64,000 bases of DNA, from positions 1 to 64,000 of IMG/VR virus record IMGVR_UViG_3300050343_000214; one strand, written 5' to 3'. The notes under the pieces were generated by a model. It ran no database searches, was not told where the DNA came from, and was given only the letters and a program-made list of their open reading frames with translations. The stretch is from a virus. Numbering within the stretch: the stretch's first letter is position 1; every line of letters begins with the position of its first letter. This document shows positions 2,620 through 41,858 of the stretch, one piece after another. A program made the translations under genes and the position numbers.

Positions 2620-3303
2620 ATGGCTGCTTTGTCAGATTATCTAGAGTCTGGTGTACTCAATCACTTATTTAGAACAACACCTTTAAGCAAACCGTCTACC
2701 ATTGCCATCGCCTTGACTTCTGATGTAGCCAAAGATTCTGATGACGGCGCTTCAATTCCTGAAATCCCTACTCAGTCCAATACTGGTTCTACCGGCTATG
2801 ATCGCGTAGGCCTTGGCGACCCGTCTCAAAATGGTAATTCCAAGTGGAACAACACGGGAGTAGATGAATTGACTGCATTTGCTATACACAGCGAACAGGT
2901 TGATCATAGTGGATACTTCTACCCTTTATATCTTTCAGAGTCCTCTGCGGAAGCTGCTGACACAGCTAATGGTGCTAATCCAGCAGACGCTGAAGAGTAC
3001 ACGTTTGATCAGTTTGGCTCTACAATATTCTATGCGCCCAAGACTCTTGACGCTAGTGGAGTTGCAAGCAACCCCGGATATCTTCTTTATGAAGGCAATG
3101 GATTTATCAAAAATTCAGCACAAATTGTGTTTGACACAGCTTTAAGTGATTGGGGCTGGGTTTCTGGTATTGCTATTTTAGACAATGAGGTTCATGGGTC
3201 TGGCAATCTGTTAATGTACGCAGAGTTAAATAATCCTAGATATGTTTACACTGGAGATAGTATAAAATTTGATGTCAATGCATTAGAAATTAGTTTTAAT
3301 TAG
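2620..3303 (+). CDS. Virion structural protein of the phage tail-fibre-like small family
   Basis: The 227-residue protein begins MAALSDYLESGVLNHLFR and continues KPSTIAIALTS. This opening (a short helix, then 'LLNHLFR...KPS...ALT') is shared by many small phage virion proteins often labelled tail fibre or capsid-associated proteins. The rest is beta-rich with several aromatic residues (GYFYPLYLS, LSDWGWVSGIAIL). ACGGAGAAA lies upstream of the ATG. It is the first gene after the head operon terminator and the first gene of the fibre block. Whether it is a head fibre or a tail fibre subunit cannot be decided from sequence. Confidence 0.55.
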   Translation: MAALSDYLESGVLNHLFRTTPLSKPSTIAIALTSDVAKDSDDGASIPEIPTQSNTGSTGYDRVGLGDPSQNGNSKWNNTGVDELTAFAIHSEQVDHSGYFYPLYLSESSAEAADTANGANPADAEEYTFDQFGSTIFYAPKTLDASGVASNPGYLLYEGNGFIKNSAQIVFDTALSDWGWVSGIAILDNEVHGSGNLLMYAELNNPRYVYTGDSIKFDVNALEISFN

Positions 3304-3329
3304 CGTACTTCTCAGACAGGAACAGATTC

Positions 3330-6300
3330 ATGTTGTTAGGCAAAAACCAGCTAATAAACAATATCAAAAGTGAGCTTTCTGATAACGCCTCTCAAGCTAT
3401 TGAGCCTTATCATCTTAGGCATAATTTACTTGACATTATTGACTCTTTCCCTTCTGTTCTTCAAGACATTGATCTTGTTGGTAAAAACTACAGCACACCC
3501 GCAACTAGATCTACTATTGCTGGTCAGTTTGCTATAGAAAGAATAAATTTTAATAATTATCAAAGTGTAGATAATTCTGCATTTGGCTTTTCAGCACTCC
3601 GCACTAATTTTGAAGGTGAGAGGAACACAGCTGTAGGTTCTCAGTCGTTATATACAAATGTCTATGGTTCTGACAACAACGCTTTTGGTCATTATGGTTG
3701 CTACGGAAATACTACTGGTTCTAACAACTTAGGCGTTGGTAACTACTCCCTGCTATCAAACAGAACTGGTAGTAATAATATAGCTATAGGACATGGTGCT
3801 GGTTATTATGTCGGCGCTAGTGATAGTTATAAATTTTTCTTAGGATCTGCTGACGTAGACGAAGCAGCGATCTGTGCCGATCCAAGTGGCATAAATGTAA
3901 CGCCCCTGATGTACGGCGACTTACAAAGTAACAAACTTGTCATTAACTCTGACGAACTGGCAAACTCAGCCACGCTTCAAACTTCTGGAGACATTGCTCC
4001 CTCAGTCCACAACTCATTTGATTTAGGTTTGAGTAATTTCTATTGGTCTTCAGTTAGGGCTAATAATCTATATTTAAGCGAGACTCAAAAGTTTTCTTCT
4101 GGTACAGATGTCACATTTAACTTTGACTTGACTCCAGAGACTAATAACGCAGTAGATCTAGGGTCTACATCAAATAGGATTAAGAAAGTCTTTGCTTACG
4201 ACTTAGACGTAGTAAACAACGCAACTATTGGTAACGCTAGCTTCGTCCACAGCACACATTATTTAGATAAAACAATTCATTTAGGATCTCAAGCATTCAA
4301 CGTATCTCTAGACGGCGGCGGTCCAAATAGTCTTTATGATTATATAGCTGATACCTCTCACATAGAAGTAACGCCTCATCTCAGCGACTCACAGCTTGTA
4401 GGCGCTGGCATGTTTATACACTCTAGCGATGACAGAGATTATACATTTACATTTCAGCCACACAATTTAAATACTAATAATTTCCTCTTCAACAATGATA
4501 TCTTAGGTAAATCTTACTGGGATAGCAATGTCAGCATAGAGTTAGGTTCAGAGTGTTATCTTAAATCTAATTATATTTTATCTTCTGGAGTACACAGCGT
4601 AAACATAGTCTCTGGCGATACGTGTCACGCGCTAGACATTTCTAATTCAGAATTTTATTTTGGTGACAGAACATTTAAGTCAGGTAATAATTTGGGTTTT
4701 GGTAATATAAATTTTGTAGCCCAAGAAAACACTAACGAATTCGTTTCTTCCCTTCTTTCTCCATCAAGCGGAGTTATATCACAAAGGTTTTTAAGTCAGA
4801 TATCTGGTTCTGACGACACCAACTTTAATAACCCCTACCTTGGCTTTGCTTTTAGTTATACAGATCATGGTAGTAGCACTGATACTAATTCTTTCTTGTC
4901 CATTCAGTCTCACAGCTTGCGCTCAGGTTCTCCATACAGAAAACCTTTAAATAAACTTCTATTGTCTAGAGACGATGATAATGCTCTATTAAAAATTACA
5001 AATGTAGACAGTGAAGATTTACCAGACGAGGCTTTACACGTAGAGACTACTGATAATACATATGTCAAAATCGAATCTTCCGGTGTGTCCAAAAGCGCTG
5101 GTGTTCTTTTGTCTAATATAGACACAAACGCAAAAGTACATTTATCTGAAGATTATGTAGATATAACATATAATGACTCCAGTATAATCAGATCTAAAAG
5201 TTCTTCGGTTGGGATACTGAATGAAACTAGCGGGTCTTACAATTTTTATCTTGCTGTAGGAGATGCTCTAAATACGGAAGCGTCAATTGGCTTACATCAT
5301 GCGAGTGGAGCGCCCGTTTCTGCTGAAGATTATGGATCTCTATTCGTAAAAGAAAGAGAAGGGGATGTCAATCAAAGTTCAGATTTAATGTTTATAGACA
5401 GCTCTGGCAACTTGTTTAATCTGGTTAGGAACAGTTCTAATCCAGACGATGGCTTAATATTCTCTTCCAACAAAAACACCAGCGGAGGCTCAGGTTCTTT
5501 TTCAAGCAAAGAATCTGCAACTGGTATTGAAAATACTGGATTTGGCGCTTCTTCACTTAAGTCAATTACTGAAGGTAGTCAAAATACTTTTTATGGTTCA
5601 TCTGCTGGAGAGTCAATAACTACTGGGTCAAACAATGTAGCAATTGGTAAGGACACGTTTAAAACGCCCACGACCCTTAGTCATAATATCTGTATTGGTC
5701 CAAATGTAGGAAACTCACTGGATTCTGATTACAACTTCGTTCTTGGTGTTAGCGACGACGCTCCATTGCTCAGGGGTAAAACTGGTCCTGCCCTGACTGA
5801 GACCTTCCTAGAGCTTCCTACTAACGGTCTGCTTAAAATACAAAATATCTCTGACACTCAGGCGCTAGAGTTAAATTCCAGCCAAATATTAGTTTCCGAC
5901 ACAGATGGCTCAGACCATACGGATACGCAGCTCAATTTCAAATTCAAAGGAAATCAAGAAAATACATTATTCACTCTAGATCACTCCCATGCTCCTCTAA
6001 ATATACCAGTTACTCATTATGACAACTCCAGCGGGCCATACGCAGAAGTTCGTGGACATTTAAAGGTCTTGGGATCTATAAAGTTTGCTGATGGAACCGT
6101 TATCGAAAGCGGGCCAAAGAGTAGCGATAAAACATTGTCTGAGCTGGATAGCGACCGTCAATCCCTAGAAACCCGCCTAGATAGCCTTGTAATAGAGGGA
6201 ACCGCTTCATCTGATATCCCTAAAGCTTCTAGCATAAACACCCCTCAGAATGGAACTCTCAACCTTGTGGGGGGAGGCACGGCTGGTATCAAACATAGAG

Positions 6301-6407
6301 ATGTTCACAATCCTATCAAGCAGGGTGATTATATTATAGCAATTAAAATAGGTAGTGAATACAGGCCAATTTCAGTTAGTAGCCAATTTAATATTATTCA
6401 GTGTTAA
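3330..6407 (+). CDS. Tail fibre/adhesin with YadA-head-like glycine/asparagine repeats
   Basis: This 1,025-residue protein has a helical N-terminus (residues 1-50) that could be a virion anchor. Residues about 80-165 hold short repeats of the form NTAVGSQSLYTN, NNAFGHYGCYGN, NNLGVGNYSLLSN and NNIAIGHGAGYY. A second set lies at about 735-795 (NTGFGASSLKS, NTFYGSSAGES, NNVAIGKDTF). Such left-handed beta-roll repeats build the heads of trimeric autotransporter adhesins and occur in phage fibres. Between them is a long beta-rich shaft. Near the end a short coiled coil (SELDSDRQSLETRLDSL) precedes a compact C-terminal domain, as in trimeric fibres. It probably acts as a trimeric receptor- or surface-binding fibre. 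No intramolecular chaperone or protease motif is seen. Confidence 0.72.
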   Translation: MLLGKNQLINNIKSELSDNASQAIEPYHLRHNLLDIIDSFPSVLQDIDLVGKNYSTPATRSTIAGQFAIERINFNNYQSVDNSAFGFSALRTNFEGERNTAVGSQSLYTNVYGSDNNAFGHYGCYGNTTGSNNLGVGNYSLLSNRTGSNNIAIGHGAGYYVGASDSYKFFLGSADVDEAAICADPSGINVTPLMYGDLQSNKLVINSDELANSATLQTSGDIAPSVHNSFDLGLSNFYWSSVRANNLYLSETQKFSSGTDVTFNFDLTPETNNAVDLGSTSNRIKKVFAYDLDVVNNATIGNASFVHSTHYLDKTIHLGSQAFNVSLDGGGPNSLYDYIADTSHIEVTPHLSDSQLVGAGMFIHSSDDRDYTFTFQPHNLNTNNFLFNNDILGKSYWDSNVSIELGSECYLKSNYILSSGVHSVNIVSGDTCHALDISNSEFYFGDRTFKSGNNLGFGNINFVAQENTNEFVSSLLSPSSGVISQRFLSQISGSDDTNFNNPYLGFAFSYTDHGSSTDTNSFLSIQSHSLRSGSPYRKPLNKLLLSRDDDNALLKITNVDSEDLPDEALHVETTDNTYVKIESSGVSKSAGVLLSNIDTNAKVHLSEDYVDITYNDSSIIRSKSSSVGILNETSGSYNFYLAVGDALNTEASIGLHHASGAPVSAEDYGSLFVKEREGDVNQSSDLMFIDSSGNLFNLVRNSSNPDDGLIFSSNKNTSGGSGSFSSKESATGIENTGFGASSLKSITEGSQNTFYGSSAGESITTGSNNVAIGKDTFKTPTTLSHNICIGPNVGNSLDSDYNFVLGVSDDAPLLRGKTGPALTETFLELPTNGLLKIQNISDTQALELNSSQILVSDTDGSDHTDTQLNFKFKGNQENTLFTLDHSHAPLNIPVTHYDNSSGPYAEVRGHLKVLGSIKFADGTVIESGPKSSDKTLSELDSDRQSLETRLDSLVIEGTASSDIPKASSINTPQNGTLNLVGGGTAGIKHRDVHNPIKQGDYIIAIKIGSEYRPISVSSQFNIIQC

Positions 6408-6416
6408 GTGTATAAA
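6408..6416 (+). promoter_or_regulatory. Candidate late promoter element GTGTATAAA
   Basis: GTGTATAAA begins one base after the fibre stop codon and 46 bases before the next ATG. It matches the element at 2568 and 63092 and resembles a T4-type late promoter box. Support is only by recurrence in otherwise non-coding DNA. Confidence 0.35.
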
Positions 6417-6453
6417 CTAGTATATTACAGCATTTACAACGGAAAGGTCAGAC

Positions 6454-6978
6454 ATGTCTTGGCAGACAGATATAACAACTATAGTTCGTCATCTTCTGAA
6501 TGACCTAGACGCAACTTCTCCATCTTTCTCAGATGATAGAGTACAAAAGACCGTTTTGGTTGCTGCTCAATTGATTGTTTCTCAGGTAGACCTTTCGCAA
6601 GATTACACGATTGATATTTCTGGAACCTCTTTGAGTCCAGACCCAACTGCGTCTGCTACCTTAGATAATGATTTTATTACGCTGTTATCCCTAAAGACAT
6701 CCTGTATAATATTAGGTAGTGAGGTTAGATCTGAATCTGGAAACGCGATATCTATAAAAGATGGGCCTTCTTCTATAGATTTGCGTGGAGTTGCCTCAAC
6801 GTTAGTTGTCTTGTACAAAGACTTATGCTCTAAATATGAATCTGCGCTTTTAGATTATAGCGCTGGAAACAGTATTGCTGGGCAAGCTATACTTGGCCCA
6901 TACAGTCCCGGCAGTGACTTTGTGAGACGTACACATGGTGACAGTTACAATCACAGAGGAAATTATTTTAGACATTAA
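6454..6978 (+). CDS. Putative head-tail connector / neck protein
   Basis: The 174-residue protein starts with a helix (MSWQTDITTIVRHLLNDLD) and continues with a helix-rich core (DRVQKTVLVAAQLIVSQVDL, FITLLSLKTSCIILGSEV). The composition and length are those of phage adaptor or head-completion proteins. I recall similar small proteins near the capsid gene in marine phages. Its C-terminus is polar and histidine-rich (THGDSYNHRGNYFRH). It sits alone among fibre genes, with its own candidate promoter and a GGAAAGG ribosome site, so its position is not strong support. A connector role is the best guess. Confidence 0.45.
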   Translation: MSWQTDITTIVRHLLNDLDATSPSFSDDRVQKTVLVAAQLIVSQVDLSQDYTIDISGTSLSPDPTASATLDNDFITLLSLKTSCIILGSEVRSESGNAISIKDGPSSIDLRGVASTLVVLYKDLCSKYESALLDYSAGNSIAGQAILGPYSPGSDFVRRTHGDSYNHRGNYFRH

Positions 6979-6991
6979 AGGAGAATAGAAA

Positions 6992-7936
6992 ATGCCTGCA
7001 AGAAAATTGAGTGACCTTACAACACGAATAGACGATGATCTGGCTAACAATAATGCTGGGTTGATATCTGCTGAAGACGTTCGTGAAAACATTAAGGATG
7101 TTGCTTTATCTATCACGACCGTTGTAGGAAGTGGAGATTTTGAAACAGAAACACCATTCTTAAAAAATGTTAAAATACAAGCGGCTAATCCGCAAAGTAC
7201 TGATTCTGGATCTTTGATTGTAGAATCTGGAATTAGCTTCCCCAATAATGGTAATACTTTTCAGTACGTTGCCTATCCCGGCGCTGCTAATATCTCTCAT
7301 AACGCCTTAGCGGATCTTGATACGGGAGATGAACACACGCAGTACATACCAATTAATGGCAGTAGGCATTTAACTGCTAACCTTGCTACAGATGACAACT
7401 GGATTAATGCCAGTGGTAATGTAGACAGCTTGGGCAGTACGTATAATGATAGAGGCTTTAAGTTCGATTATGTTGATGCTAGCAATGAGACCATAAACGT
7501 TGGTTCTAAATCTACTGTAGAATTCAATGCTGATAGTTCAAAGATGGCAAATGCTAAAGGTGTAGCTAAGGCTTGGATATCTTTTGGTTGGAATAATTCT
7601 TCTAACGTAAACGAAGTTAATAACTCATTTAACATAGCATCTCTTGAACGTACTCATGTTGGTAGATACAAAGTTACTTTTACAGAAGCTTTTCCCGACA
7701 CTTTATATATAGCTATTGGTACTAGTAATGGTCGTACTGCTGGCGCCACTGCTACCAACTTTGAAAATAATACTGTTGGTATTGTGGAAAGAACTGCAAC
7801 TTATATGACTGTAGGCATTATAGCCGATGACGGTAATGCTTATGTTGATGCTGCCGTAGTAGACATCGTAGTGTATGGTACGGTCACTGGTGAAACCAAA
7901 GAAACTACACCAACCATTACAAACAGCGTAGTCTAA
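6992..7936 (+). CDS. Tail fibre-type protein with N-terminal virion-binding segment
   Basis: The 314-residue protein opens with MPARKLSDLTTRIDDDLANN, a pattern common at the attachment end of phage fibres. The middle contains HNALADLDTGDEHTQYI, a motif widely seen in phage fibre and baseplate-linked proteins. The C-terminal 150 residues form an all-beta domain (RYKVTFTEAFPDTLYIAIGT, then repeated aromatic and valine strands) that resembles a receptor-binding tip. It is well placed, with AAAGGAGAA upstream, as one of the short fibres in the cassette. The receptor cannot be guessed. Confidence 0.6.
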   Translation: MPARKLSDLTTRIDDDLANNNAGLISAEDVRENIKDVALSITTVVGSGDFETETPFLKNVKIQAANPQSTDSGSLIVESGISFPNNGNTFQYVAYPGAANISHNALADLDTGDEHTQYIPINGSRHLTANLATDDNWINASGNVDSLGSTYNDRGFKFDYVDASNETINVGSKSTVEFNADSSKMANAKGVAKAWISFGWNNSSNVNEVNNSFNIASLERTHVGRYKVTFTEAFPDTLYIAIGTSNGRTAGATATNFENNTVGIVERTATYMTVGIIADDGNAYVDAAVVDIVVYGTVTGETKETTPTITNSVV

Positions 7937-7953
7937 TAAATTAAGAGGGAATC

Positions 7954-10900
7954 ATGTCAGATAACTTAATCATTATTGCAGATAGAGTCAAAGAGACTAG
8001 CCTAACAGTTGGTACTGGCGATCTTGCTCTAGGTGGAGTCGTTGGTGGCTTTAGTGCATTCAGCGATGTTTACGCTAGCGGAGATGCTCTGTTTTATGCC
8101 GTAACCGATGGAACCAATTATGAGGTTGGCTCTGGTATTTTTCACTATGATCAACCAACTAGTCTGAATTCTCTTCAAAGATTTCCCACTAGAAGTAGTT
8201 TAGCAAATAATGGCTTGGTAGATTTTCCACAAAGTACTAAAGAAGTTTATGTTACATATCCAGCAACCCACTCAGTATACATTGGGTCTGGTGTCGCTGA
8301 TCTTAATTTCCCTCAAGCCAGCGGTCTTGCTTTTTGGTCGTCTAGCAACATACTGAATTATGATAATGATATCGTGTGGGATTCTGACAATCATCGTTTA
8401 GGCATCTTGAGTCCCAATCCGTCTTATGGAATTGAAGTTGGTGGCAATGGATTTGAATCTTCTGTTCAAGCTTCAGGCTTCTACGTAGGTTCATCTGGAG
8501 TTGTTTTTCCTGCACAAAATAATGGTGACGCAACTTATGCTGGTGGAAACCAGCTGTTACACTTTGAGAAAAATCAAACTAATAGTGAAACTGGATCAGA
8601 CTTAGTAATTGAACTAAGTGGCGTTGTTGATCAAGTTATTCTACTCAAGCAACAAAATAAAGGCACTGTTTTTGCTGGACCCGCAAGTGGCTGTCCCGGT
8701 GATTGTGATCCGAACTACCCTGAATTCAGATATTTAACTCTAGAAGACATTCCAGATTTGAGTTCTGTATATTCCAGCTTTAGTGACCTACAAGCAGCTT
8801 CTGGTGCTGTCAATACAGACAGTATCGCGCGTTCCGGTAATCTACAATCTCAAATTGATGACAATCTGACTTCAGTTAATTCTGACGTTAGTACCGTATC
8901 TGGTGCTTTAACTGCCGATGTTAATGCTGTCAAAAATACATTTGACGTTGTAAAAAGTGGTGGTGAGTATGAATTTAGCAACGTTGGAACTTCTACCGAT
9001 TTAAACCCAAATATCTTCTTACAAAAGGGTTTAACCTACTACTTTAATATTGACTCCGCTGGAACTCCTTTCTATGTAAAGACAGCACCAGTTGTTAACA
9101 CAGATGACGTTTTTGATGATGGAGTTACAGGCAATGGTATAACTAGTGGGACTTTAACTTTTGTAGTTCCACAAGACGCCCCAGACATTTTATACTATAC
9201 TGCTTCTAATATTTCTACAGCTTCAGGCATTATATATACTGCTGACATTAATCTTACCTCAGAAAATCTCTACGACAATCTTACTTCTTCTGATTCTCAA
9301 GCCAGTGACAAGATTGCTATTTGGGATTCCAGTGCTAGTGAATACAAAAATATTTCTTTAGAGTCTCTCTTGTTTGCTCCTAGCGGCAATTCATACATTA
9401 AACGAGAAACCATAGCAAGTTCTAGCGCCGTTGGAGATTTGGGAGAAATAACGTTTGATGATACTTACGCATATTTCAAAACGAGTACTGAGTGGAAAAG
9501 GATTAAGATGCTTCCTTTTCAAACTACTACTACCACCACTACAACGAGTACAACCACAACTACAACGTATCCACCATCTTGTACTACTCTGGCTCCAGAC
9601 TGCGGCAATCAAACTTGGAGAACGATAACTGGAGTTGATGTGAATGGATGTCCAGAGTATAGTTCTTGCGCTACAACAACAACTACTACCGCAGCTCCCA
9701 CAACTACGACTACGACTACAACTACTACCTTATCTCCCTCAGACTATTCAAACTTTATATACACTTGGGGTTATAATGGTAATAATCAATTAGGATATAG
9801 AACTAGTGAATTATTCAGTCTATCTCCTACTAAATTGGATATAGGTAATGTTTCTGAGCTATCAGCTGGAGATTTTCATGTTCTTGCAATAGATATATAT
9901 GGTGATCTTTATTCTTGGGGATGGAATATAAATGGTCAAGTTGGTGATGGCACTAAGGTTGACGCTCCAGTTCCCGTTGAGATAGGTTCTGGCAAAGATT
10001 GGAGTTCAGTTGCTGCTGGAGATCATCACAGCGCAGCGATTGATTCAACTGGTGCGCTTTACACTTGGGGTGCTAACAATCTTGGTCAGCTTGGTAACGG
10101 CAATAGAGCCACAGTCTTGACGCCAACTAGAATTGCTGCAAATGTCACTTGGTCTAAAGTGTTCTGCGGCACTGCTCACACTTTAGCTATTAGTTCAATT
10201 GGAGAGCTATACGCTTGGGGATCTAACGAATACGGACAGGTAGGAAATGGAACTTTCACAGACGTTCTGACCCCAACCAAGGTTGGTGTTGAAAACAACT
10301 GGACAACTGTTTCTGCCTACATGCATACTCTAGCTTTAAACTCTGAAGGTCAATGTTTTGCTTGGGGTAGGAATGATGCTGGTCAACTAGGACTTCATCG
10401 CTTAGAAGGCACAAGCCCACTGTTTGAAAACCAAAATTCTCCACAGCAGATTTCTAAGAGAGACACTGGAGGCAACGTTATACTTAACGCTGGAACAGTC
10501 GATAACTGGAAAGCCGTTGCTGCTGGATATCAACACTCTTTAGCTATTAACAATGCTGGAGAACTTTATGTTTGCGGCAACAATGAATTCCGTCAAATAG
10601 GTAGAGCTGGAATCACTCAGACAATAGTGCCGGGAGTCGGAACAAATCCTGCAACTACCACAATAACACAAGAACCAGTTCATACATTCACGCGCCTTGG
10701 ACTAGAAAGAAACTGGAATAAGGTTGCCGCCGGAAACTTCCACAGTATTATAATTAGTGCTGCTGGAGACATGTATGCAATGGGACGAAATAATTATGGA
10801 CAGCTTGGAGATGGAACCACTGATAATAAAGATGTTTTGACTTTGATCTCTACTGATTTTGATTGGGACTTCCCACAAGCTGGTTATGACTTTACTACCG

Positions 10901-11223
10901 CTATAGGAAACTCTAAGATGTCAAATACAACAACTACAGCTCCTCCTTCATCGTTTACAAATTCACTTACAGCAGCTGCAAACGGACAAGCTACTGATAC
11001 GACAAATGGCGTAACCTTCTTAGCCCCTGAAGGTGCTAAGTTAGACTACAATATTCCTTCTACAGTAGAAGATCTTGCTCTAAATACTAACGTCTTCATT
11101 GAAGGCAGCTACGTGTTTACCTTTACAGCCACCGCTGCTTTTGCGGGACAAGTTATTAGGTACACGCCAGTTTCTGGATCTCCTGTAATAGTTACTCTCG
11201 CAAACGGAAGGGTTGATGCATGA
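7954..11223 (+). CDS. Phage fibre carrying a seven-bladed RCC1 propeller
   Basis: This 1,089-residue protein has a typical fibre N-terminus (IIIADRVKETSLTVGTGDLALGG...), a coiled-coil/beta shaft, and a cupredoxin-like domain at about 330-432 whose metal ligands are absent. Then come two poly-threonine linkers around a small four-cysteine module (residues about 524-592), and a full RCC1 beta-propeller (about 600-985). Seven RCC1 blades are visible, e.g. YTWGYNGNNQLG, YSWGWNINGQVG, YTWGANNLGQLG and YAMGRNNYGQLG. After another TTTTAPP linker a C-terminal domain of about 90 residues ends the chain. RCC1 propellers are protein- or chromatin-binding platforms in eukaryotes; on a phage fibre a binding role is inferred. 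The stop overlaps the next start by four bases (ATGA). Confidence 0.8.
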   Translation: MSDNLIIIADRVKETSLTVGTGDLALGGVVGGFSAFSDVYASGDALFYAVTDGTNYEVGSGIFHYDQPTSLNSLQRFPTRSSLANNGLVDFPQSTKEVYVTYPATHSVYIGSGVADLNFPQASGLAFWSSSNILNYDNDIVWDSDNHRLGILSPNPSYGIEVGGNGFESSVQASGFYVGSSGVVFPAQNNGDATYAGGNQLLHFEKNQTNSETGSDLVIELSGVVDQVILLKQQNKGTVFAGPASGCPGDCDPNYPEFRYLTLEDIPDLSSVYSSFSDLQAASGAVNTDSIARSGNLQSQIDDNLTSVNSDVSTVSGALTADVNAVKNTFDVVKSGGEYEFSNVGTSTDLNPNIFLQKGLTYYFNIDSAGTPFYVKTAPVVNTDDVFDDGVTGNGITSGTLTFVVPQDAPDILYYTASNISTASGIIYTADINLTSENLYDNLTSSDSQASDKIAIWDSSASEYKNISLESLLFAPSGNSYIKRETIASSSAVGDLGEITFDDTYAYFKTSTEWKRIKMLPFQTTTTTTTTSTTTTTTYPPSCTTLAPDCGNQTWRTITGVDVNGCPEYSSCATTTTTTAAPTTTTTTTTTTLSPSDYSNFIYTWGYNGNNQLGYRTSELFSLSPTKLDIGNVSELSAGDFHVLAIDIYGDLYSWGWNINGQVGDGTKVDAPVPVEIGSGKDWSSVAAGDHHSAAIDSTGALYTWGANNLGQLGNGNRATVLTPTRIAANVTWSKVFCGTAHTLAISSIGELYAWGSNEYGQVGNGTFTDVLTPTKVGVENNWTTVSAYMHTLALNSEGQCFAWGRNDAGQLGLHRLEGTSPLFENQNSPQQISKRDTGGNVILNAGTVDNWKAVAAGYQHSLAINNAGELYVCGNNEFRQIGRAGITQTIVPGVGTNPATTTITQEPVHTFTRLGLERNWNKVAAGNFHSIIISAAGDMYAMGRNNYGQLGDGTTDNKDVLTLISTDFDWDFPQAGYDFTTAIGNSKMSNTTTTAPPSSFTNSLTAAANGQATDTTNGVTFLAPEGAKLDYNIPSTVEDLALNTNVFIEGSYVFTFTATAAFAGQVIRYTPVSGSPVIVTLANGRVDA
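9523..9567 (+). repeat. Poly-threonine linker 1 (ACN codons)
   Basis: Fifteen codons read Thr except one Ser. All four third bases occur, so the run is kept at protein level rather than as a simple DNA repeat. It separates the fibre shaft from a small cysteine module. Confidence 0.85.
9673..9729 (+). repeat. Poly-threonine/Ala-Pro linker 2
   Basis: Six Thr codons, Ala-Ala-Pro, then ten Thr codons, again with mixed third bases. It joins the small cysteine module (C at both ends of a segment of about 30 residues) to the RCC1 propeller. Confidence 0.85.
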
Positions 11224-13403: not shown

Positions 13404-13404
13404 C

Positions 13405-17639: not shown

Positions 17640-17659
17640 AATAACAAAGGAACCATGCT

Positions 17660-21117: not shown

Positions 21118-23193
21118 GTGGTTGGAGATGTAATTCCTGCAAAGCCTTATGGCGCTGGCGCTGGAAGTACAGTAAAAGCATCTACCTACTATGATCACAT
21201 AAACAATAAATTTGTAAATAGAATTATACGAACCGCAGTGTCTAATACCACTTCTGTTTACTTTGAAGATTCTAACAATCCTTCTTTGGGAGCAAAGAAT
21301 GGTCTAGTTTCTGTGTACGATTTTGATAGCGTTCAAAACAAGTGGGTCCAATATCTGCCAGACATCTCTGACTCTAGCCTTACTGCTGACAAGCAGTTTG
21401 GTACAAATAATGGTAGAAATCTTGGCAGATCCGTCGCGCATCATTATCATACATCTAGAGTGTCCGATCAAACCACAGATGATTTTGTTCGCTACAGTAT
21501 TCTCGCTACTTCCTTAAATTCAGATACATCTGGAATAAGCGCTATGCGTAGAGTCACAGACAAATTAGTTACTACGACCCCAGCGCCCACCACGACTCCA
21601 GCGCCGACTACTATCCCGCCAGAACCTTCTGCGGACATACCTAGATATACTAATACGGCTGGTATGGTCCCTGTAAACTATGCTTCTGACAACATTGGCC
21701 CTCCTGTTTACGATAATAATATTTCTTCTTCAGAAACTCCTAACGATTTAATGCACTTGCCATTATCTTCTATTGTTACATCTGAGGATGGTTACACATC
21801 TGTCATGTGGGACGATAGGTCTAACTATGTAAATATTGATGACAGGAGGACGTATATACTCACTGGATTTCCGAACATTACAGAATATGAGCCAGCTAAT
21901 ATCCAATCTTCTATAGATCCTATTTCTGATGAGTATGAAGTACATACTGAACTGACGGTTGATAGTAACCATAAGAGGAGGGTAGTTGATTGCGCTGTTT
22001 CTGATGGCGGTGAACACATTGCAGTCACTATAGCTCAAACTCCTGCTGGTAAGTCTGCTGGCTTGGAAAAATCTTATGTTTTACTTTATCAAAGAAATCA
22101 AGAAAAACTTGGGGATGGAGCTGATACAGCTCAATTATTAAACAAATTTGTTTATTCTTTACTTAAAACTGCCACACAGTCTATAAACAATTCTTTAGAC
22201 ACAAGTGGGCAAAATCAATCTAATTACATAGATGGTGTAGATTTTAGTGAATACTCATTAGGATACAAAGATGCTCCTACTCCCGGTGAAACAAACCTTA
22301 ACTATCAGAACCGAAGACACAACAGACATAAAGTGATTTGTGTGCTTGTATCTAAACCTTTAAATGATTCTTCTGGGAATTCCTCTACAGCTATGTCTGC
22401 TTACTTGTTTGGCCTTAAGCTTGCTAATCAAGCTTTGACATATCGTGTTCCGGCGGGCTTGGTGGATGGTAAGGATGACGCACAGCAGCTTTATAAGGTT
22501 GACATTCCATATAATAGACTCATGGATGAATCTCTGTTTATAAATGGATCAAGTAGAAACGATTTCATTAGAACTGCTCGCCAACAATCTATGCATATAC
22601 CTAGAATTGTAGATAGGTATTTTGTTAAGAATGATGATGGTGATAGATATGCTCCAGATGATCGAATGTCTGCTGTGGCAGCGCCAACTGGTTACGATGC
22701 TATGGATACGGTCTCAAATGTCATTGGTGATTATACTCATCAAAAATACGACATATATATTTACAGGCTTAATAGGTCTCAACCCGGAACTAACGTTTTT
22801 AATACTCATCACTACGATGTGTTGTCTTGTATAGTTTCTATGAATCAATATGACACAAAGATTCGTACTTATAATACTAATTCTGATACTAGCTTTAAAT
22901 TTAATGGCTCTTCAGTGAATTTTCGTATAAGTCAGACAAATCAGACTGATCAAAACGAAAGCCACCAGTGGAGAACAGGAAAGGTCTCAAGAACTGGCTT
23001 CCTTCCTATTAGCGCAATAGATCAAGAGTATACTGGTAGAAGTGGTCTAACTAGATCAGACTTTGGTGGAGAATCAGACCCTTCAACACCAACTGTTCCT
23101 AATAACAATACTACTGATGCTCCTACTGCAACTACCACCACTGCATACGTAGCGCCGGACAACAACAACAATAATAATGGAGGAGGATATTAA
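21118..23193 (+). CDS. Giant fibre protein, C-terminal part
   Basis: This 691-residue segment has no convincing start of its own; its frame is open upstream to about 21066. It continues the propeller-like pattern (GLVSVYDFDSVQNKWVQYL, LGRSVAHHYH), then carries TTTPAPTTTPAPTTIPPEPS at about 151-170. A long beta domain follows (SEDGYTSVMWDDRSNYV, DGGEHIAVTIAQTPAG). It ends with a low-complexity tail rich in Thr, Ala, Asn and Gly (TTTTAYVAPDNNNNNNGGGY). It is best read as the second half of the gene starting at 17660. GGAGGAGG in its last codons serves as the ribosome site of the next gene, whose ATG overlaps the stop by one base. Confidence 0.6.
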   Translation: MVGDVIPAKPYGAGAGSTVKASTYYDHINNKFVNRIIRTAVSNTTSVYFEDSNNPSLGAKNGLVSVYDFDSVQNKWVQYLPDISDSSLTADKQFGTNNGRNLGRSVAHHYHTSRVSDQTTDDFVRYSILATSLNSDTSGISAMRRVTDKLVTTTPAPTTTPAPTTIPPEPSADIPRYTNTAGMVPVNYASDNIGPPVYDNNISSSETPNDLMHLPLSSIVTSEDGYTSVMWDDRSNYVNIDDRRTYILTGFPNITEYEPANIQSSIDPISDEYEVHTELTVDSNHKRRVVDCAVSDGGEHIAVTIAQTPAGKSAGLEKSYVLLYQRNQEKLGDGADTAQLLNKFVYSLLKTATQSINNSLDTSGQNQSNYIDGVDFSEYSLGYKDAPTPGETNLNYQNRRHNRHKVICVLVSKPLNDSSGNSSTAMSAYLFGLKLANQALTYRVPAGLVDGKDDAQQLYKVDIPYNRLMDESLFINGSSRNDFIRTARQQSMHIPRIVDRYFVKNDDGDRYAPDDRMSAVAAPTGYDAMDTVSNVIGDYTHQKYDIYIYRLNRSQPGTNVFNTHHYDVLSCIVSMNQYDTKIRTYNTNSDTSFKFNGSSVNFRISQTNQTDQNESHQWRTGKVSRTGFLPISAIDQEYTGRSGLTRSDFGGESDPSTPTVPNNNTTDAPTATTTTAYVAPDNNNNNNGGGY

Positions 23194-26100
23194 TGCCTAC
23201 GCCAAAAAGCAATTTGATCAAAATAGTTAAGCTATCCGAGAATGCTTCTATACTTGAGCAGAAAAGCACTATTGCTACAGATAGGGGACATCAGTATAAC
23301 ATGCATGTTTCTAATGATGGCGCTAGACTTTTAACCCAAGATGCTCCCCAATCTCTTCAAGACCAAGGCGCTAGTGATTGGAGCGGTGGAGGATTTAACG
23401 ATTGGTATAATAAATTAAATTCAACGTCTTGGGATCAACCAAAATCTGATTTGCGAGAGTTTTATAATACTACTCAGAACGTTTATGGATATGCTGCTAT
23501 AGATAATACCAAACAAGTTTTCGCTGAACAAGTAGTTAATTCACATTCTAATTCTACAATTGATATAAGCAACAGCGCCATTACTTGTCTTGACAAATCA
23601 GACCCTGTTGTTTCTACTCCGGTTATTAGACTAGGGCCACTAAGCACTTCGGACCAATTAAGCGATGTACATGGTTTTATGCATCGTGAACCACTTAAGT
23701 CAGGCAGCGATTATGAGTCGGCATTTGAGCATGTGTACAACTATTCCTCTGTTACTGACGCGCAGTTAGATAGATGGCGCTTACACGTACCTGCTGTGGG
23801 TGGCGGCGCCGTAAGAAGTCAATTTGACCGCTCTTCAGGTTTGGTTATAGAAGAAGGATCATCTACAATCGGCTTAGAAGAACATGAAACAGCATTTGAC
23901 TTTTCAGAAGAACGGCTAGGTTCAAGATCAACTCAATCATTACCAAGCGATCTCATGGTTCTTCACAATTATCATTTAAAATCTGATAGAGATTCTGTTA
24001 GCACCCCCACCGCCACCGATACGGCTGGACGCATCCATTTGCCAGATTTTGAAGAAAATACCAACAAGACAGGGTATGACGATGGCGCTGCGATGCTTGG
24101 AGAATTCTCAATAGCACGAAGTCGATACTGCGATCCTGCATCCAACGGCGGGAATACATTTTTAGATTTTTCTGTTAGCCTTCGACTACAGAGTGTTACT
24201 CAGTCCGCAGGAGTACCTGCCATGAGAGACATATACTGTTATAGCACTCCGTTTTCAACCTTTGGATATGGGTTCTATGAATTTCCAAACTCGCCCACGA
24301 ACAATTATGTCACCACCCATGATATGAAATTTTCTAAAATACAACCTGCGTACATGAGATTTGGAGGGATATCCCTAAGATCTTCTACTGGTGATATTAA
24401 TAAAATGGATCAAGTAGTTTTAAAATCTAATGAATGTATATCATTAGCTGGTTCTAGTGTTGGCACTAATGGCCTTTCTTATAATAATTCTGATGTTGCA
24501 GATATAGTTATATCAATTCCAGAAATGTCAACAGAAAAATGGTATTTCCTTCACGTATTTTCTGATGTAGAAAAACTTACCGTTGCTATAGACGGAGAAG
24601 TTGTTGCCACTAGAGAGCATGAAACTTCCTTAACTTCACAACATATCTATACTGTTGGCGATTCTGCAAGTGCGGCAAAGTACTCTAAAGATCCCAACGC
24701 ATACCGACCATACATAAACTACAGTAATACGCGGGCTAATGTTATGGGACTAACACCTAGTCATGGCTGTCCTCCTGTTGCAGCTGGTAGATCCCTTTTT
24801 GCTAAATATCCCATTCAAAATGATTACAATACTTACGACGTTACTACCCATCAGTTAGTAATTTTTACCACCAGTGCAACACCTAGATTTATTTATAACG
24901 AGCGTCCCGACGAAATATTTCTTATGAAAAATTTAGCTCCACACTTGTCGGACCCTAATAAGATAAGTACGAGTTTGTTGAGTGCCATAGGGAATATTAT
25001 TCCTCACTTTAAAACACTAACACCTGCAACACTTGGTCTTTCCTTGCGGTTTTCGACTAATTCTACTGCGGCGTCTGCTATGAACATCTGGACCGGACGA
25101 GACAGCATGGTTCTCAACAAATCTGAAGCTTGGTTGCTACATGCTGATCATGATTCTATAACGGACTACCTATCTTGGGATCAACCATCATACGCCTTTG
25201 GCAGGTCCAATACATCAGAAAAGATGCTAGAACATGATCCGGGTAAAGCTGGTATAAATTCTCTCTTGTCTGTTTATTCGTCTAGCTGGAACGGATTGTT
25301 AAACTATAATGATTCACACAACGCAACCTATGGTTCTTCACGACATTATATACATTCAACGGTTGATATTAGTACAAACACCACCACCAGCCGAATGCGT
25401 CAAGATTCTAGCGAGCAAATGCTGTACGGCATATCTCCAACTCATTTAATAATAGCTCCAAATAGAAGGTATGGTCAAGCTGTTATAATGTCTAATGAAA
25501 AAAACCAAACTGTTTTCTATACTCCTTTTTGTGGACACATGCATTCTTTTAGTTTATCAAGATTAGATGGTCGAAAGATTATTAACAGTAAGGAGTTCGC
25601 TAAAGCTAAACATGCACATTTCTCTAAGATGAATGATACAAGAAAAAAGAACAACAGTTTCTTTGCTACTGATTCAGAAAATTTAAAAGATCGAGTGAAT
25701 TTATATGGAAGCACTAAGCCAACGCAGGAAGGTCTTTGGCCTACAACCGACAGCAGCTTTTCTAGCACTACCGCTATAGAAGATTATGTAAATACTGGAT
25801 CTGATCTTTCTAGTAACCAAGCATTCCATGTTGGAGAAGCGCCAATAGTGGGTGATAGAAGCAGAACCCAATTCAATAAACACAACTCCCTATCAGATGG
25901 CAATGTTAGATATTACACAGAGCAATATGTTTCGACAGACTATAATAGTGATTTGAATGATTTAATAGTTGCTCCTTTTTCAGACTACAAAACGGCTACT
26001 ACAGATAACATTGTTACTCAAGGCGTGAGACATGATGTGTTTTTTAATTACAAGAAAACCGCCCTTTCTTCTATGTACAGTGTTGGCGTTGTTGGGGCAG

Positions 26101-26231
26101 ATAATTTTGGTCAAGCAGGAGTTGGTTCCTCAGAACACGCTCTTGGGGATACTGGAATATATAATTCTGTAACGTCTGTTGGCAAAAACAATTATGGACA
26201 GCTGGGTGACGGTTCTACAAGCACAACTTAA
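23193..26231 (+). CDS. Large fibre-block protein ending in two RCC1 blades
   Basis: The 1,012-residue protein is translated from a very strong GGAGGAGG site. Most of it matches no family I recognise. Around residues 445-480 a stretch with EKWYFLHVFSDVEKLTVAI and DGEVVATREHE looks like a concanavalin/LamG-type sandwich. The last 50 residues are unmistakably RCC1-like (YSVGVVGADNFGQAGVG, then TSVGKNNYGQLGDGS). The blade is cut off right after the turn, and its continuation appears at the start of the next gene. This suggests that the two proteins complete one propeller together. Cysteines are few and there is no signal peptide. Likely a virion surface protein. Confidence 0.6.
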   Translation: MPTPKSNLIKIVKLSENASILEQKSTIATDRGHQYNMHVSNDGARLLTQDAPQSLQDQGASDWSGGGFNDWYNKLNSTSWDQPKSDLREFYNTTQNVYGYAAIDNTKQVFAEQVVNSHSNSTIDISNSAITCLDKSDPVVSTPVIRLGPLSTSDQLSDVHGFMHREPLKSGSDYESAFEHVYNYSSVTDAQLDRWRLHVPAVGGGAVRSQFDRSSGLVIEEGSSTIGLEEHETAFDFSEERLGSRSTQSLPSDLMVLHNYHLKSDRDSVSTPTATDTAGRIHLPDFEENTNKTGYDDGAAMLGEFSIARSRYCDPASNGGNTFLDFSVSLRLQSVTQSAGVPAMRDIYCYSTPFSTFGYGFYEFPNSPTNNYVTTHDMKFSKIQPAYMRFGGISLRSSTGDINKMDQVVLKSNECISLAGSSVGTNGLSYNNSDVADIVISIPEMSTEKWYFLHVFSDVEKLTVAIDGEVVATREHETSLTSQHIYTVGDSASAAKYSKDPNAYRPYINYSNTRANVMGLTPSHGCPPVAAGRSLFAKYPIQNDYNTYDVTTHQLVIFTTSATPRFIYNERPDEIFLMKNLAPHLSDPNKISTSLLSAIGNIIPHFKTLTPATLGLSLRFSTNSTAASAMNIWTGRDSMVLNKSEAWLLHADHDSITDYLSWDQPSYAFGRSNTSEKMLEHDPGKAGINSLLSVYSSSWNGLLNYNDSHNATYGSSRHYIHSTVDISTNTTTSRMRQDSSEQMLYGISPTHLIIAPNRRYGQAVIMSNEKNQTVFYTPFCGHMHSFSLSRLDGRKIINSKEFAKAKHAHFSKMNDTRKKNNSFFATDSENLKDRVNLYGSTKPTQEGLWPTTDSSFSSTTAIEDYVNTGSDLSSNQAFHVGEAPIVGDRSRTQFNKHNSLSDGNVRYYTEQYVSTDYNSDLNDLIVAPFSDYKTATTDNIVTQGVRHDVFFNYKKTALSSMYSVGVVGADNFGQAGVGSSEHALGDTGIYNSVTSVGKNNYGQLGDGSTSTT

Positions 26232-26257
26232 TATAAGAATTTAACAAGGAGTTAGAA

Positions 26258-27736
26258 ATGTCTTTAAAAAATGCACTACTTCCAGATAGCGTTGTCGATG
26301 CAGCGTGTGGTAATGATCACTCTTTAGCTGTAACATCTGGTGGCGAATTATATTCTTGGGGTAACAATGGCTTTGGTCAACTAGGTCATGGAGATCGGAC
26401 TCATAGATCAAGCCCTACTAGGGTTGGTTCAAGAACAGATTGGGTCAGAGTTTTTGCTGGTACAAATCATTCTGTAGCTCAAACCTCTGATGGAAAGTTT
26501 TATGGGTTTGGATTAAATGTATCGAAACAACTTGGGGAAGGTCTCAGTACGACAGCTCAATATGTACAGACCCCAGAACTTTTGCTTTCAGAGCCTACCA
26601 ATTTGTCGAGTACAGAAGCTAGTGATTTGCAGACAATGAGGGGAAATATTAACAGTCTCAGCACTAATGTTTTTTGTGGTCCTAATTGCACTATTTTTAT
26701 TACTTCCAGCACTGTATTTTGCAACGCTCTGTACCTCAGTGCTTCGTATAAAAACAACAACGTCTTCTTGTTGGGAGCTAATCCATCTTTTCTTAATAAA
26801 GTTGTTCAATACAGCTTACCACGCGGCATTGGCGCAATACCAGATGGAACTACTGATTATTCTATAAGTGATAACGGAATTTTATTAAATAGATACAATA
26901 TGTTAGCAATGAACGGTATGGTTAGGTTATGGTCAGATCAATCTTGGAGTGGATACAATAATTATTATAAGAGCAGCTCCCTTGCAAACCTTGGTTATAA
27001 TGCTAAGTTGAGTGAGAGATGGTCTTATACATTTGCCTTTGCTAATCATTTTGTTACAAGAGATTTAAGTTACGGTGGAGAAGCGTTTTACGCCAACATG
27101 GCTGACTTCATGGTTGGGACAAACGCGAATTCGGCTAGCAGTCTTACCATAAGTAGAAATTTATTCACTCATGAAAAATCTTCAGATTATACATACGCCG
27201 CTCAAGATGCTTCCGTAAGTTTAGATGATCATACTGTTTTTGCAATAAGTTCTAATAACGATTTGTTGGCTTCAGTAGCACCAAGAAGATTCATATCTTA
27301 TTCAAATTCATATTTCGACACCTACACTAATTATAATTACATCTCCCAATTGGGAGAGGCTCCATCGGGACCAGACAACACGGGGAGCTATCGCATTAGC
27401 CTTATAAACGATGGGGGCAAAAGTAATCCATATTATGTAAGCAATAATCGCCCTGAGAGTTCACCCCTTTTCAATTCTTCTGGAGGAGGCATGGATGGAA
27501 CTGGAGACCTTCAGCCTTATGGCAATGTGAAGTGTAGCACAGTTTTCAACGGTAGAGATAGAATATATGCATTGGATAATAACGGTATTCTTCTTTCTGC
27601 TGGCAAGGATGATAATTATCTTTTAGGTAGAGATGTTTCTACGTCTACTCCAGCTAATGAGCTACACCCTACAGCTATTCGTAATGTAAAAAGAGTCGTA
27701 TCGGGTCGTCACCATTCCCTTTTCCTACAGAACTAA
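26258..27736 (+). CDS. RCC1 propeller protein completing the preceding gene's blade
   Basis: This 492-residue protein starts from AAGGAG six bases upstream of the ATG. It opens directly in mid-blade: VVDAACGNDHSLAVTSGGEL, then YSWGNNGFGQLGHG, WVRVFAGTNHSVAQTSDGK and YGFGLNVSKQLGEG. The middle (about 100-430) is more divergent and includes an insertion. The end closes with LLSAGKDDNYLLGRD and RVVSGRHHSLFLQN. Counting the two blades at the end of the upstream gene gives about six or seven, as expected for a closed propeller. The stop codon is followed, one codon later and in the same frame, by the ATG of the next gene. Confidence 0.65.
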   Translation: MSLKNALLPDSVVDAACGNDHSLAVTSGGELYSWGNNGFGQLGHGDRTHRSSPTRVGSRTDWVRVFAGTNHSVAQTSDGKFYGFGLNVSKQLGEGLSTTAQYVQTPELLLSEPTNLSSTEASDLQTMRGNINSLSTNVFCGPNCTIFITSSTVFCNALYLSASYKNNNVFLLGANPSFLNKVVQYSLPRGIGAIPDGTTDYSISDNGILLNRYNMLAMNGMVRLWSDQSWSGYNNYYKSSSLANLGYNAKLSERWSYTFAFANHFVTRDLSYGGEAFYANMADFMVGTNANSASSLTISRNLFTHEKSSDYTYAAQDASVSLDDHTVFAISSNNDLLASVAPRRFISYSNSYFDTYTNYNYISQLGEAPSGPDNTGSYRISLINDGGKSNPYYVSNNRPESSPLFNSSGGGMDGTGDLQPYGNVKCSTVFNGRDRIYALDNNGILLSAGKDDNYLLGRDVSTSTPANELHPTAIRNVKRVVSGRHHSLFLQN

Positions 27737-27739
27737 AAT

Positions 27740-29962
27740 ATGTTTCCAGAACGTTTTGATAAAATAATACAGTTTTTGCCTAATGGTCAATCTGTGACTT
27801 ACGTTAAGGGCGCTGGTCTTCAGGGAATTACTTACTTGAGGAACGGAGAAACGTATGTCTTTATTAGTGCTAATGATGATGACCACATTGTTTGTGATGG
27901 GGTTGTGGCTACAACGACGACTACTACTACGTCAACTACGACCACAACAACTACAACTACAACTACAACAGCCGCTCCTACCACTTCACTTTCTTTCAGA
28001 AATATTGTAGGCGATAACGGTTGCAATGGTTCGCTTAGTGAATTTCCTAAATGTATTCCTTGTTCACCCACAAGCATTAGCCATGTTGTTAAAACTAAAG
28101 AAGAAGATGGCGTTATTACATTTAAAGTCTCTGTCGGCGTAACTAATCCTAATACTAGTCAACTTCAGTATATATGGGAGTATAAATCCTATACCACAGA
28201 ATGTTCCAGTGGTGATTGGACCCGCTTTGGCACTTCAAATTCCAGCGCCAATCAATACGGAGTTACGTCTGTACCCACTGTAGACTTTAATTATGACTGT
28301 ATTATTGGTCAGTCCTTGAGGATAGAAGTAAGATGTACTGCTCTTATGGGTTGGGAAAACACTCGTACCATTTCAAATAGTTACTATTACAAATGCGATA
28401 ACGAGCTAGATACATCTGAACTTGTTAATAAGTTTGATTTATTAATTAGTACACCAGAAAACGCATCAGAATCTTTCCCCACAGGCTTTACGACAATTAG
28501 TAGAGGTTTTGTGTTAAGCGATAGTAAGGAATACGACTATGATACTGAACAATGTGAATATGATGACTATGTTGAAGGCGGTTATTTACTCTTAAACCAA
28601 CCATCTGACATGTTAGGAGATCGTAATCTTCTTCAATTACCGTTTTCTGAATCAACTAAAGAAGCTATAAAACAAATAGGTCAAGTCGAATGGCTTATAA
28701 GAAGACCCACCGATACGCCTCTTGCAAGTGATAGCGCATCTACTCTAAAAACATTACCAAACAACCAGAGATCGTTCCAAACCTTATCGTCTACTACAGC
28801 GCTCAATAATGATAACGATCCGACTACTTTAAATTTGGCATCTATTAATTTTCCTAGTTTGTATACAGGTTATTACGAAATAGTGGCTAAAGTTCGACTT
28901 GGCACTGAAACGTGCTACTCCAAAATTGTTCCAGTTTTTCTCAATAATTATCTCAGTTCACGGATAAGTATGTATGACACAAGCCGTCCTGATTTAATTT
29001 CTTTAGGTTATCACGGTCATCAAAAACATTGCGCTTACACGGGGAATTATCCTACTGTCGGCGCGCCTAGTATAACAGCAGACGTTGCTATTATTAATGG
29101 TACGGCACCCAGCGCTGGTTTGCCAAGTAGTGATACACAAAATGTTTATGTAGCATCAAGAATAGGAGACAGGAGTTATGGCGCTTTGGAGCATCTATTT
29201 CCTATAAGCTCAGTTTATGTTGACGGAAATTATGTTACGAGAAAAAATTTGAAAGTTGTGTATAACCAAAAAAATAATTCTTTGTCGTATAATAATTCGT
29301 ATTTTATACATGAGGTGTCGGATTCGGAAAATACGAATGTGCTTGCATCTGTTCAGTCGTTAGTAACTTCAGTCTGGGGATTTTATGATCCTCAAAATCC
29401 TATCTGTGCGTTTGGAAGATATTACCCTCACCCTACGATAAGACCTTGGAATTATGGTGTTTTAGCTCCACTTAAACGTGGCTCTTACTATAGTTCCAGC
29501 GGGTACGGTTCTTATCCGGCACAGATATCTGACTTAACTGGTGGTAACACCTTAAAAATAAATTTAAGAACAGCGTTCACTTACAATGACGACGATAAAC
29601 CAGAAGCTCACGATTTAGTTGTTGTTCCACACATGCAGTATAGTAATGATGGGGGTGGTACTTGGAGAAATGCCGGGGGTCTGCAATCGGTTGTCAAGAA
29701 AAACAATAAATTTTGGCAGGCAACTTTTCGTAATCCTTATTCTTATGGTGCTAGTTATTGGGATATTTTTGGATGGCGTAGTGGCACTCTGATCCGTTAC
29801 ACCCCCGTAGGTTATGCAGGAGTTCTCGGAGGATCTTATGATAAAGATATATACAACGCTGGTGGCTATCCGGGTCTTGCGATTAGGCAGTTAACAGATC
29901 CATCTATTCCTATTAATTCTAGGGTTCATTCTGTATTTTCACAGCCATTTTCTTTACCATAG
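27740..29962 (+). CDS. Fibre-block protein: truncated wedge module, poly-Thr linker, beta domains
   Basis: The 740-residue frame is in phase with the upstream RCC1 gene, separated by TAA-AAT. It has no visible ribosome binding site, so translation may depend on re-initiation or stop readthrough. Residues 5-52 (DKIIQFLPNGQSVTYVKGAG...LRNGETYVFISA) are the shared module lacking its first strands. Residues 58-77 are nearly pure threonine. The rest is beta-rich, with Cys pairs at about 95-110 (GCNGS, KCIPCSP), an Ig-like stretch at 115-220 (QYIWEYKSY... LRIEVRCTAL) and a long C-terminal region ending near VFSQPFSLP. Functional assignment beyond a virion fibre component is not possible. Confidence 0.58.
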   Translation: MFPERFDKIIQFLPNGQSVTYVKGAGLQGITYLRNGETYVFISANDDDHIVCDGVVATTTTTTTSTTTTTTTTTTTTAAPTTSLSFRNIVGDNGCNGSLSEFPKCIPCSPTSISHVVKTKEEDGVITFKVSVGVTNPNTSQLQYIWEYKSYTTECSSGDWTRFGTSNSSANQYGVTSVPTVDFNYDCIIGQSLRIEVRCTALMGWENTRTISNSYYYKCDNELDTSELVNKFDLLISTPENASESFPTGFTTISRGFVLSDSKEYDYDTEQCEYDDYVEGGYLLLNQPSDMLGDRNLLQLPFSESTKEAIKQIGQVEWLIRRPTDTPLASDSASTLKTLPNNQRSFQTLSSTTALNNDNDPTTLNLASINFPSLYTGYYEIVAKVRLGTETCYSKIVPVFLNNYLSSRISMYDTSRPDLISLGYHGHQKHCAYTGNYPTVGAPSITADVAIINGTAPSAGLPSSDTQNVYVASRIGDRSYGALEHLFPISSVYVDGNYVTRKNLKVVYNQKNNSLSYNNSYFIHEVSDSENTNVLASVQSLVTSVWGFYDPQNPICAFGRYYPHPTIRPWNYGVLAPLKRGSYYSSSGYGSYPAQISDLTGGNTLKINLRTAFTYNDDDKPEAHDLVVVPHMQYSNDGGGTWRNAGGLQSVVKKNNKFWQATFRNPYSYGASYWDIFGWRSGTLIRYTPVGYAGVLGGSYDKDIYNAGGYPGLAIRQLTDPSIPINSRVHSVFSQPFSLP
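27911..27970 (+). repeat. Poly-threonine linker (20 codons)
   Basis: Twenty consecutive codons are Thr except one Ser, with ACA, ACG, ACT and ACC mixed. It is followed by AAPTTS. It is the longest of the Thr linkers in the window. Confidence 0.85.
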
Positions 29963-35230: not shown

Positions 35231-35247
35231 TAGCCAAGGACGTTATC

Positions 35248-41857: not shown

Positions 41858-41858
41858 A

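What the first reader, a model, noticed from the sequence alone, without database searches (positions are those of the whole stretch)
2620..29962. A 27-kb block of propeller fibres between capsid and neck genes
At least ten large genes lie between the major capsid gene and the neck/tube genes, where most phages keep only connector genes. They include RCC1, YVTN-like and FG-GAP-like propellers, a YadA-like fibre, cupredoxin-like domains and an Ig-like domain. Most are coupled by ATGA or near-zero gaps. Such a stock of different propellers in one phage suggests a multi-component receptor-binding apparatus or a virion surface coat. Gene order and motifs are seen; the role is inferred.
Basis: partly seen in the sequence, partly recalled or inferred. 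Interest (0 to 1): 0.8.

Follow-up and report, generated by a model that had tools for sequence, protein, structure and literature searches.

The report
Variable fibre island between phage head and tail
An abundant but never-cultured group of phages keeps, between its head and tail genes, a fast-changing set of large fibre genes; this phage has filled it with several propeller-shaped proteins that probably stick out from the head-tail junction to grip host cells or surfaces.

Summary
The block is real, but "ten propeller genes" needs correcting. The record is full of indel frameshifts: ORFs 17660-20947 and 21118-23193 are one broken gene. RCC1 (7954, 26258) and YadA (3330) are firm; the YVTN, FG-GAP and Ig calls rest partly on orthologues, and cupredoxin is unconfirmed.

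Relatives show what it is. More than 600 IMG/VR contigs carry the same capsid gene, almost no isolate does, and every relative read has an 11.5-37.5 kb block in this place. Its frame is fixed: capsid, GP4-gp80-like protein, YadA fibre, slot A, p174, p314, an anchor fibre conserved only in its first ~270 residues, slot B, p161. The slots hold different giant proteins in different phages. The window's clade fills slot B with propeller proteins, several sharing an ~85-residue N-terminal module found only in that clade. Two relatives 96% identical in DNA differ by 0.8 kb against 6.5 kb inside the last slot-B gene.

Best explanation: a hypervariable, modular fibre system mounted near the portal/neck and used for adhesion. 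The virion location is inferred from GP4-, Venkman- and A-1(L)-type phages, not shown. New variant of a known kind.

The parts
1493..2506 (+). major capsid protein, left border of the island
   Evidence: 83-92% identical to 80 IMG/VR relatives; weak match to Bacillus phage G major head protein
2620..3303 (+). GP4 gp80-like (fibre I) protein, conserved ends with a variable middle
   Evidence: PF23140 E=1e-20; PDB 8jou_a E=7e-7 with profile A2
3330..6407 (+). YadA-like trimeric fibre, conserved N-terminus
   Evidence: phrog_6002 E=7e-23, phrog_4636 E=1e-17; present in all 13 relatives
6408..6453 (+). slot A, empty here; up to about 30 kb in relatives
   Evidence: gene tables of relatives
6454..6978 (+). 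p174, conserved small structural protein, possibly a connector (inferred)
   Evidence: 50-64% identical in all 13 relatives; no PDB, Pfam or PHROG match
6992..7936 (+). p314, fibre protein
   Evidence: phrog_11355 tail fiber E=1e-13; directly upstream of the anchor in 60 of 65 loci
7954..11223 (+). anchor fibre: residues 1-270 conserved anchor, then poly-T linkers and an RCC1 propeller
   Evidence: RCC1-like domain E=1e-85; only the N-terminus is conserved in most relatives; AF2 model confident for residues 11-100
11220..13403 (+). two copies of the N85 module plus YVTN/FG-GAP-like propeller region
   Evidence: N85 domain E=2e-18 and 5e-27; Foldseek tandem propellers on a low-confidence model
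13405..15216 (+). YVTN/lactonase-like propeller
   Evidence: PF10282 E=1e-5; orthologues in G014, G021 and L128
15213..17639 (+). N85 module, coiled-coil repeats, cupredoxin-like C-terminal part
   Evidence: N85 E=6e-20; phrog_677 E=3e-25
17660..23193 (+). one gene read as ORFs 17660-20947 and 21118-23193 because of two frameshifts: N85 module, weak FG-GAP, Ig-like
   Evidence: frames and missing ribosome site; intact 2347-aa orthologue in G021; N85 E=1e-15
23193..26231 (+). private 1012-aa protein, RCC1-like repeat motifs at its C-terminus (seen by eye)
   Evidence: ORF with ribosome site ggaggat; no relative found
26258..27736 (+). RCC1 propeller protein
   Evidence: RCC1 E=4e-24, RCC1-like domain E=4e-35
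27740..29962 (+). private 740-aa protein with a partial N85 module and poly-T linker
   Evidence: N85 domain E=3e-5, whole protein E=3e-7
29971..30456 (+). p161, right border of the island
   Evidence: 54-76% identical in all 13 relatives

Best explanation
It is a hypervariable fibre island. Fixed parts (GP4-gp80-like protein, YadA fibre, p174, p314, anchor fibre) build fibres on the portal/neck region of a long-tailed phage, and two slots between them take in and swap giant adhesins. In the window's clade slot B is filled; several of its proteins carry one or two copies of an ~85-residue N-terminal module (called N85 here) that probably docks them to a common base, while their different heads (RCC1, YVTN-like, FG-GAP-like, Ig-like) contact host or particle surfaces. 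Shown: the conserved frame, the variable slots, the shared N85 module, and tip replacement between near-identical relatives. Inferred: presence in the virion, the portal/neck location, docking by N85, and a role in adhesion additional to the tail tip.
For: Fixed gene frame in 13 relatives and p314-anchor adjacency in 60 of 65 loci. Block length 11.5-37.5 kb between the same borders. Gp80-like protein matches GP4 fibre I. Gp80-like and anchor-domain genes also lie close together between capsid/portal and fibre genes in ctXG6705, Venkman and CRP-6, and Venkman has the same YadA families. N85 shared by several block proteins. G014 and G021, 96% identical, differ by 0.79 against 6.46 kb inside the last slot-B gene. 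Neck-mounted fibre systems exist in A-1(L), and DEV has a collar compared to GP4.
Against: No virion data. p174 and p161 match no known connector by sequence. The fold match of the anchor to GP4 is not significant (E=0.22), and the matched GP4 chain is a tail fibre, which says fibre anchor but not neck. In Caulobacter phage Seuss a 116-aa protein of this fold exists, and the 116-aa gene in the part of its genome read here lies among genes after the tape measure (identity of the two not tested).
Confidence: 0.58

Rival explanations
1. Ordinary tail-tip or baseplate fibres: the proteins attach to the distal tail, and gene position says nothing about where they sit.
For: 15213 matches phrog_677, annotated baseplate wedge tail fiber connector. 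The same stretch matches cyanophage tail-fibre proteins. The GP4 chain resembling the anchor is a tail fibre.
Against: The tail-tip region after the tape-measure gene already has its own conserved giant FG-GAP protein in every long relative. The island lies between head and connector genes in all relatives, next to a Gp80-like gene that PHROGs class as head protein.
Confidence: 0.2
2. A capsid surface coat (Hoc-like display) that binds mucus, particles or cell surfaces over the whole head.
For: Adjacent to capsid and cement genes; Ig-like domains in orthologues; phrog_240 and phrog_6002 are classed as head proteins.
Against: Anchor domain recurs in fibre genes of podophages beside portal, adaptor-like and Gp80 genes. 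Giant proteins of up to 3690 aa are unlikely in hundreds of copies per head (inference).
Confidence: 0.12
3. Mostly an artefact: broken genes or a mis-joined assembly make an ordinary region look like a propeller array.
For: Many frameshifts in the record. No relative of 23193 was found, and the pattern scans with 17660 and 13405 gave no confirmed relatives, though searches do show orthologues of those two.
Against: Frameshifts hit conserved enzymes equally, so they look like sequencing errors. Slot-B gene order is shared with G014 and G021. Long open frames persist and base composition is even.
Confidence: 0.05

Closest known systems
GP4/Bcep22-like and Venkman-like podophage fibre cassettes (Gp80, PF23140, plus fibre genes after the capsid and adaptor genes)
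   Same: Gp80-like gene with, in Venkman and ctXG6705, an anchor-domain gene next to or near it; Venkman also has a YadA-family fibre.
   Different: Those phages are short-tailed with much smaller cassettes. The long-tailed group adds p174/p314, two slots of up to about 30 kb, and in the window's clade the N85 propeller array.
Neck fibres of Anabaena myophage A-1(L) (gp5 15-mer, gp82/gp81/gp80; PMC10966104)
   Same: Several proteins build a long fibre anchored at the neck by an N-terminal domain.
   Different: No sequence link found; A-1(L) neck-fibre genes lie far from its other structural genes, and its fibre is a chain of identical beads.
RCC1-domain proteins of Synechococcus phages S-SRM01 and BUCT-ZZ01, Brevibacillus phage Jenst, Clostridioides phages
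   Same: RCC1 propellers at 27-35% identity to the window's.
   Different: Matches cover only the propeller; the anchor is not matched there.
T4-like cyanophage tail-fibre proteins (phrog_677)
   Same: Match to 15213 residues 354-661 and to 7954 residues 303-519.
   Different: Shared part only; different N-terminus and genome place.

Membership tests
GP4-type fibre I (Gp80, PF23140) | Gp80 sequence family | tested here: met
   2620-3303 PF23140 74.8 bits against cut-off 27; PDB 8jou_a E=7e-7
GP4-type fibre I (Gp80, PF23140) | chain-like fibre attached near the tail vertex of the virion | not testable with these tools
   Needs virion structure; the GP4 arrangement is from my own knowledge of Zheng et al. 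2023, not read here
Portal/neck-anchored fibre system | fibre with a conserved N-terminal anchor domain and variable C-terminus | tested here: met
   Anchor residues 1-270 conserved, ORF length 316-3029 aa
A-1(L)-type neck fibre | gp5-like 15-mer neck protein | tested here: inconclusive
   p174 profile gives no PDB match at E<=1; its fold was not predicted
RCC1-like propeller family (PF00415) | RCC1 repeats above the curated cut-off | tested here: met
   7954 224 bits and 26258 85 bits against cut-off 21.7
FG-GAP propeller (PF14312) in 17660 | score above the curated cut-off | tested here: not met
   17.3 bits against 23; met in the G021 orthologue and in L128
Diversity-generating retroelement target | reverse transcriptase in the genome | tested here: not met
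   RVT_1 absent in 21 records, some of them fragments

The most novel reading that the evidence does not exclude
A widespread uncultured phage lineage carries a dedicated evolvable island in which different propeller adhesins, joined by a common N85 docking module, are displayed together on one neck collar, separate from the tail-tip receptor-binding machinery, with tips exchanged between nearly identical phages.
Probability: 0.35. Interest if true: 0.75.

Novelty: new variant of a known kind. Interest (0 to 1): 0.55.

Why it matters
Neck fibres are among the least understood parts of phages. Here a group with more than 600 contigs in IMG/VR spends roughly 11-37 kb per genome on one variable island between head and tail genes. 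That makes it testable how phages diversify adhesion without a retroelement and whether propellers act as exchangeable binding heads on a common base.

Tried and rejected
Retroelement-driven variation: no RVT_1 in 21 records. Assembly chimera: disfavoured from 7954 to ~18 kb by gene order shared with G014/G021; not testable for 23193-29962, which has no relative. Programmed frameshift at 20.94/21.04 kb: rejected, because frameshifts also litter conserved enzymes. The 26231/26258 boundary as a sequencing error: one indel cannot join the frames, so kept as real. Slots A and B mutually exclusive: rejected by L128/G015, where contig coordinates put the anchor ~15.5 kb after the capsid gene while slot B is also filled. 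p174 as a known adaptor: no match by profile or hhalign. Host: four MAG contigs in four different groups (SAR202, Alphaproteobacteria, Flavobacteriales, Chitinophagia), so no assignment. Scans with 23193, 17660 and 13405 gave no confirmed relatives. Venkman gp51, named 'HERC6' in its record, as an RCC1 protein: not supported. Literature searches found no description of this locus.

Full report
What is there. The window is the first 64 kb of a 105.8-kb linear IMG/VR virus record. On the + strand come cement, major capsid, then thirteen ORFs (twelve genes) from 2620 to 29962, then p161, p216, p312 and tube. Family searches support RCC1 propellers in 7954 and 26258 strongly, a lactonase/YVTN-like propeller in 13405 moderately, and FG-GAP in 17660 only weakly. 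YadA repeats in 3330 and fibre families in 6992 and 15213 are found with PHROGs. The first gene of the block, 2620-3303, is a relative of GP4 fibre-I protein gp80 (PF23140 E=1e-20; PDB 8jou_a E=7e-7).

Record quality. Intact proteins of relatives match this record in two to six pieces in alternating frames in many conserved genes; one 682-aa gene (ribonucleotide-reductase-like, judged from its sequence) matches in six pieces over three frames at 75-96% identity. This pattern fits sequencing indels. It applies to the block: 17660-20947 and 21118-23193 join into one frame through two shifts, 21118 lacks a ribosome site, and G021 has one intact 2347-aa gene starting with the same module. The region at 33.1-34.0 kb and the giant gene at 41.9-53.3 kb are broken the same way. 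The starts at 23193 and 26258 have strong ribosome sites and are kept as real.

Relatives. In 13 relatives the same frame recurs: protease/scaffold, cement, capsid, Gp80-like, YadA, [slot A], p174, p314, anchor fibre, [slot B], p161, p216, p312, tube (for G008 the fetched stretch does not reach the protease/scaffold gene). Over these and G021 the capsid-to-p161 distance is 11.5-37.5 kb, median 21.5 with the window included. A second scan with the anchor profile found 203 relatives. In 65 loci read, p314 is directly upstream in 60, the anchor ORF is 316-3029 aa (some cut by the contig end), and p161 follows within 530 bp in 45 of the 51 loci where it is seen. So slot B is usually nearly empty, and slot A usually carries the bulk. 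The window's clade (G014, G021, G015/L128, L132) fills slot B; by contig coordinates G014, G021 and L132 have an empty slot A while L128 fills both.

A shared N-terminal module. An iterative profile search found an ~85-residue module (called N85 here) in 11220 (two copies), 15213, 17660, 27740 (partial) and once more at 98714-98839 (-) of the record, and in G014. A profile built only from relatives recovers the block copies in the window at 2e-18, 5e-27, 6e-20, 1e-15 and 3e-5 per domain, and shuffled proteins gave no match to the iterated profile. In the anchor loci it occurs only in L128, L130, L131 and L132. The module sits in front of divergent heads, which is what a common attachment domain would look like; that it docks anything is inferred.

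Variation. G014 and G021 are 96% identical over 17.4 kb that includes the first four slot-B genes and the start of the last one, then differ (0.79 kb against 6.46 kb, the latter with Ig and FG-GAP repeats), then agree again at 91% from p161. Among other close pairs, L042/L043 differ in length inside an unlabelled giant gene and L146/L175 by an extra stretch before p161. No reverse transcriptase was found, so ordinary recombination is the likely mechanism (inference).

Where on the virion. The anchor's residues 6-110 recur in other phages: CRP-6, after portal and a weakly Gp80-like gene; ctXG6705, after capsid, two unnamed genes, a Gp80-like gene and an HNH gene; Venkman, after capsid, 'tail tube A' and Gp80, with a fibre of the same YadA families downstream; and CRP-603. 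The AF2 model of the anchor is confident for residues 11-100. It matches proteins of uncultured phages in BFVD (31 hits E<0.001) and, not significantly, GP4 chain 8jov_1 (E=0.22), a tail fibre homologous to BcepIL02 gp58. DEV has a 15:12 fibre collar round its head-to-tail adaptor, compared there with GP4 (PMC10925440), and A-1(L) anchors five neck fibres on a 15-mer neck protein (PMC10966104). Together these favour the portal/neck over the tail tip, without proof. From my own recollection of Zheng et al. 2023, GP4 fibre I is attached near the tail vertex of the head; I did not read that paper. The long relatives also have a giant FG-GAP protein (open frames of 2.2-4.5 thousand residues) after the tape-measure gene, a plausible tail-tip protein, so the island is probably an additional adhesion system.

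Verdict. The block is a hypervariable fibre island, and the propellers are one clade's filling of it. Its core is a known kind (GP4/Venkman-type fibre cassettes); its size, slots and N85 array make it a new variant. Virion location and function are inferred.

Noticed in passing
window 33200-34030, 41859-53286, 56480-57360; record positions 67-92 kb: Frameshifts in many conserved genes of this record, most likely sequencing indels; gene counts anywhere in the window should be treated with care.
   Followed up: partly
window 41859-53286: Pieces of one giant FG-GAP protein after the tape-measure gene, intact in relatives with open frames up to about 4,500 residues (G001: 3959 aa), a plausible tail-tip protein.
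   Followed up: partly
L105 12562-14091 (record 96562-98091, minus strand): A fibre-like protein with poly-T linkers carries what looks by eye like a Hint/intein-type self-processing domain; an N85 copy lies near it at record 98714-98839.
   Followed up: no
L124: A 93.7-kb contig binned with a SAR202 genome carries an 83% identical capsid relative: a possible host hint or a binning error.
   Followed up: no
L104 and L105 (record 64-92 kb, minus strand): By sequence reading only: split DNA polymerase III alpha-like genes, several glycosyltransferase-like genes and a RecA-like gene.
   Followed up: no
window 23150-23193 and G001 32795-43867: Two giant block proteins of different phages both end in an Asn/Gly-rich run and Tyr right before an overlapping start codon.
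   Followed up: no
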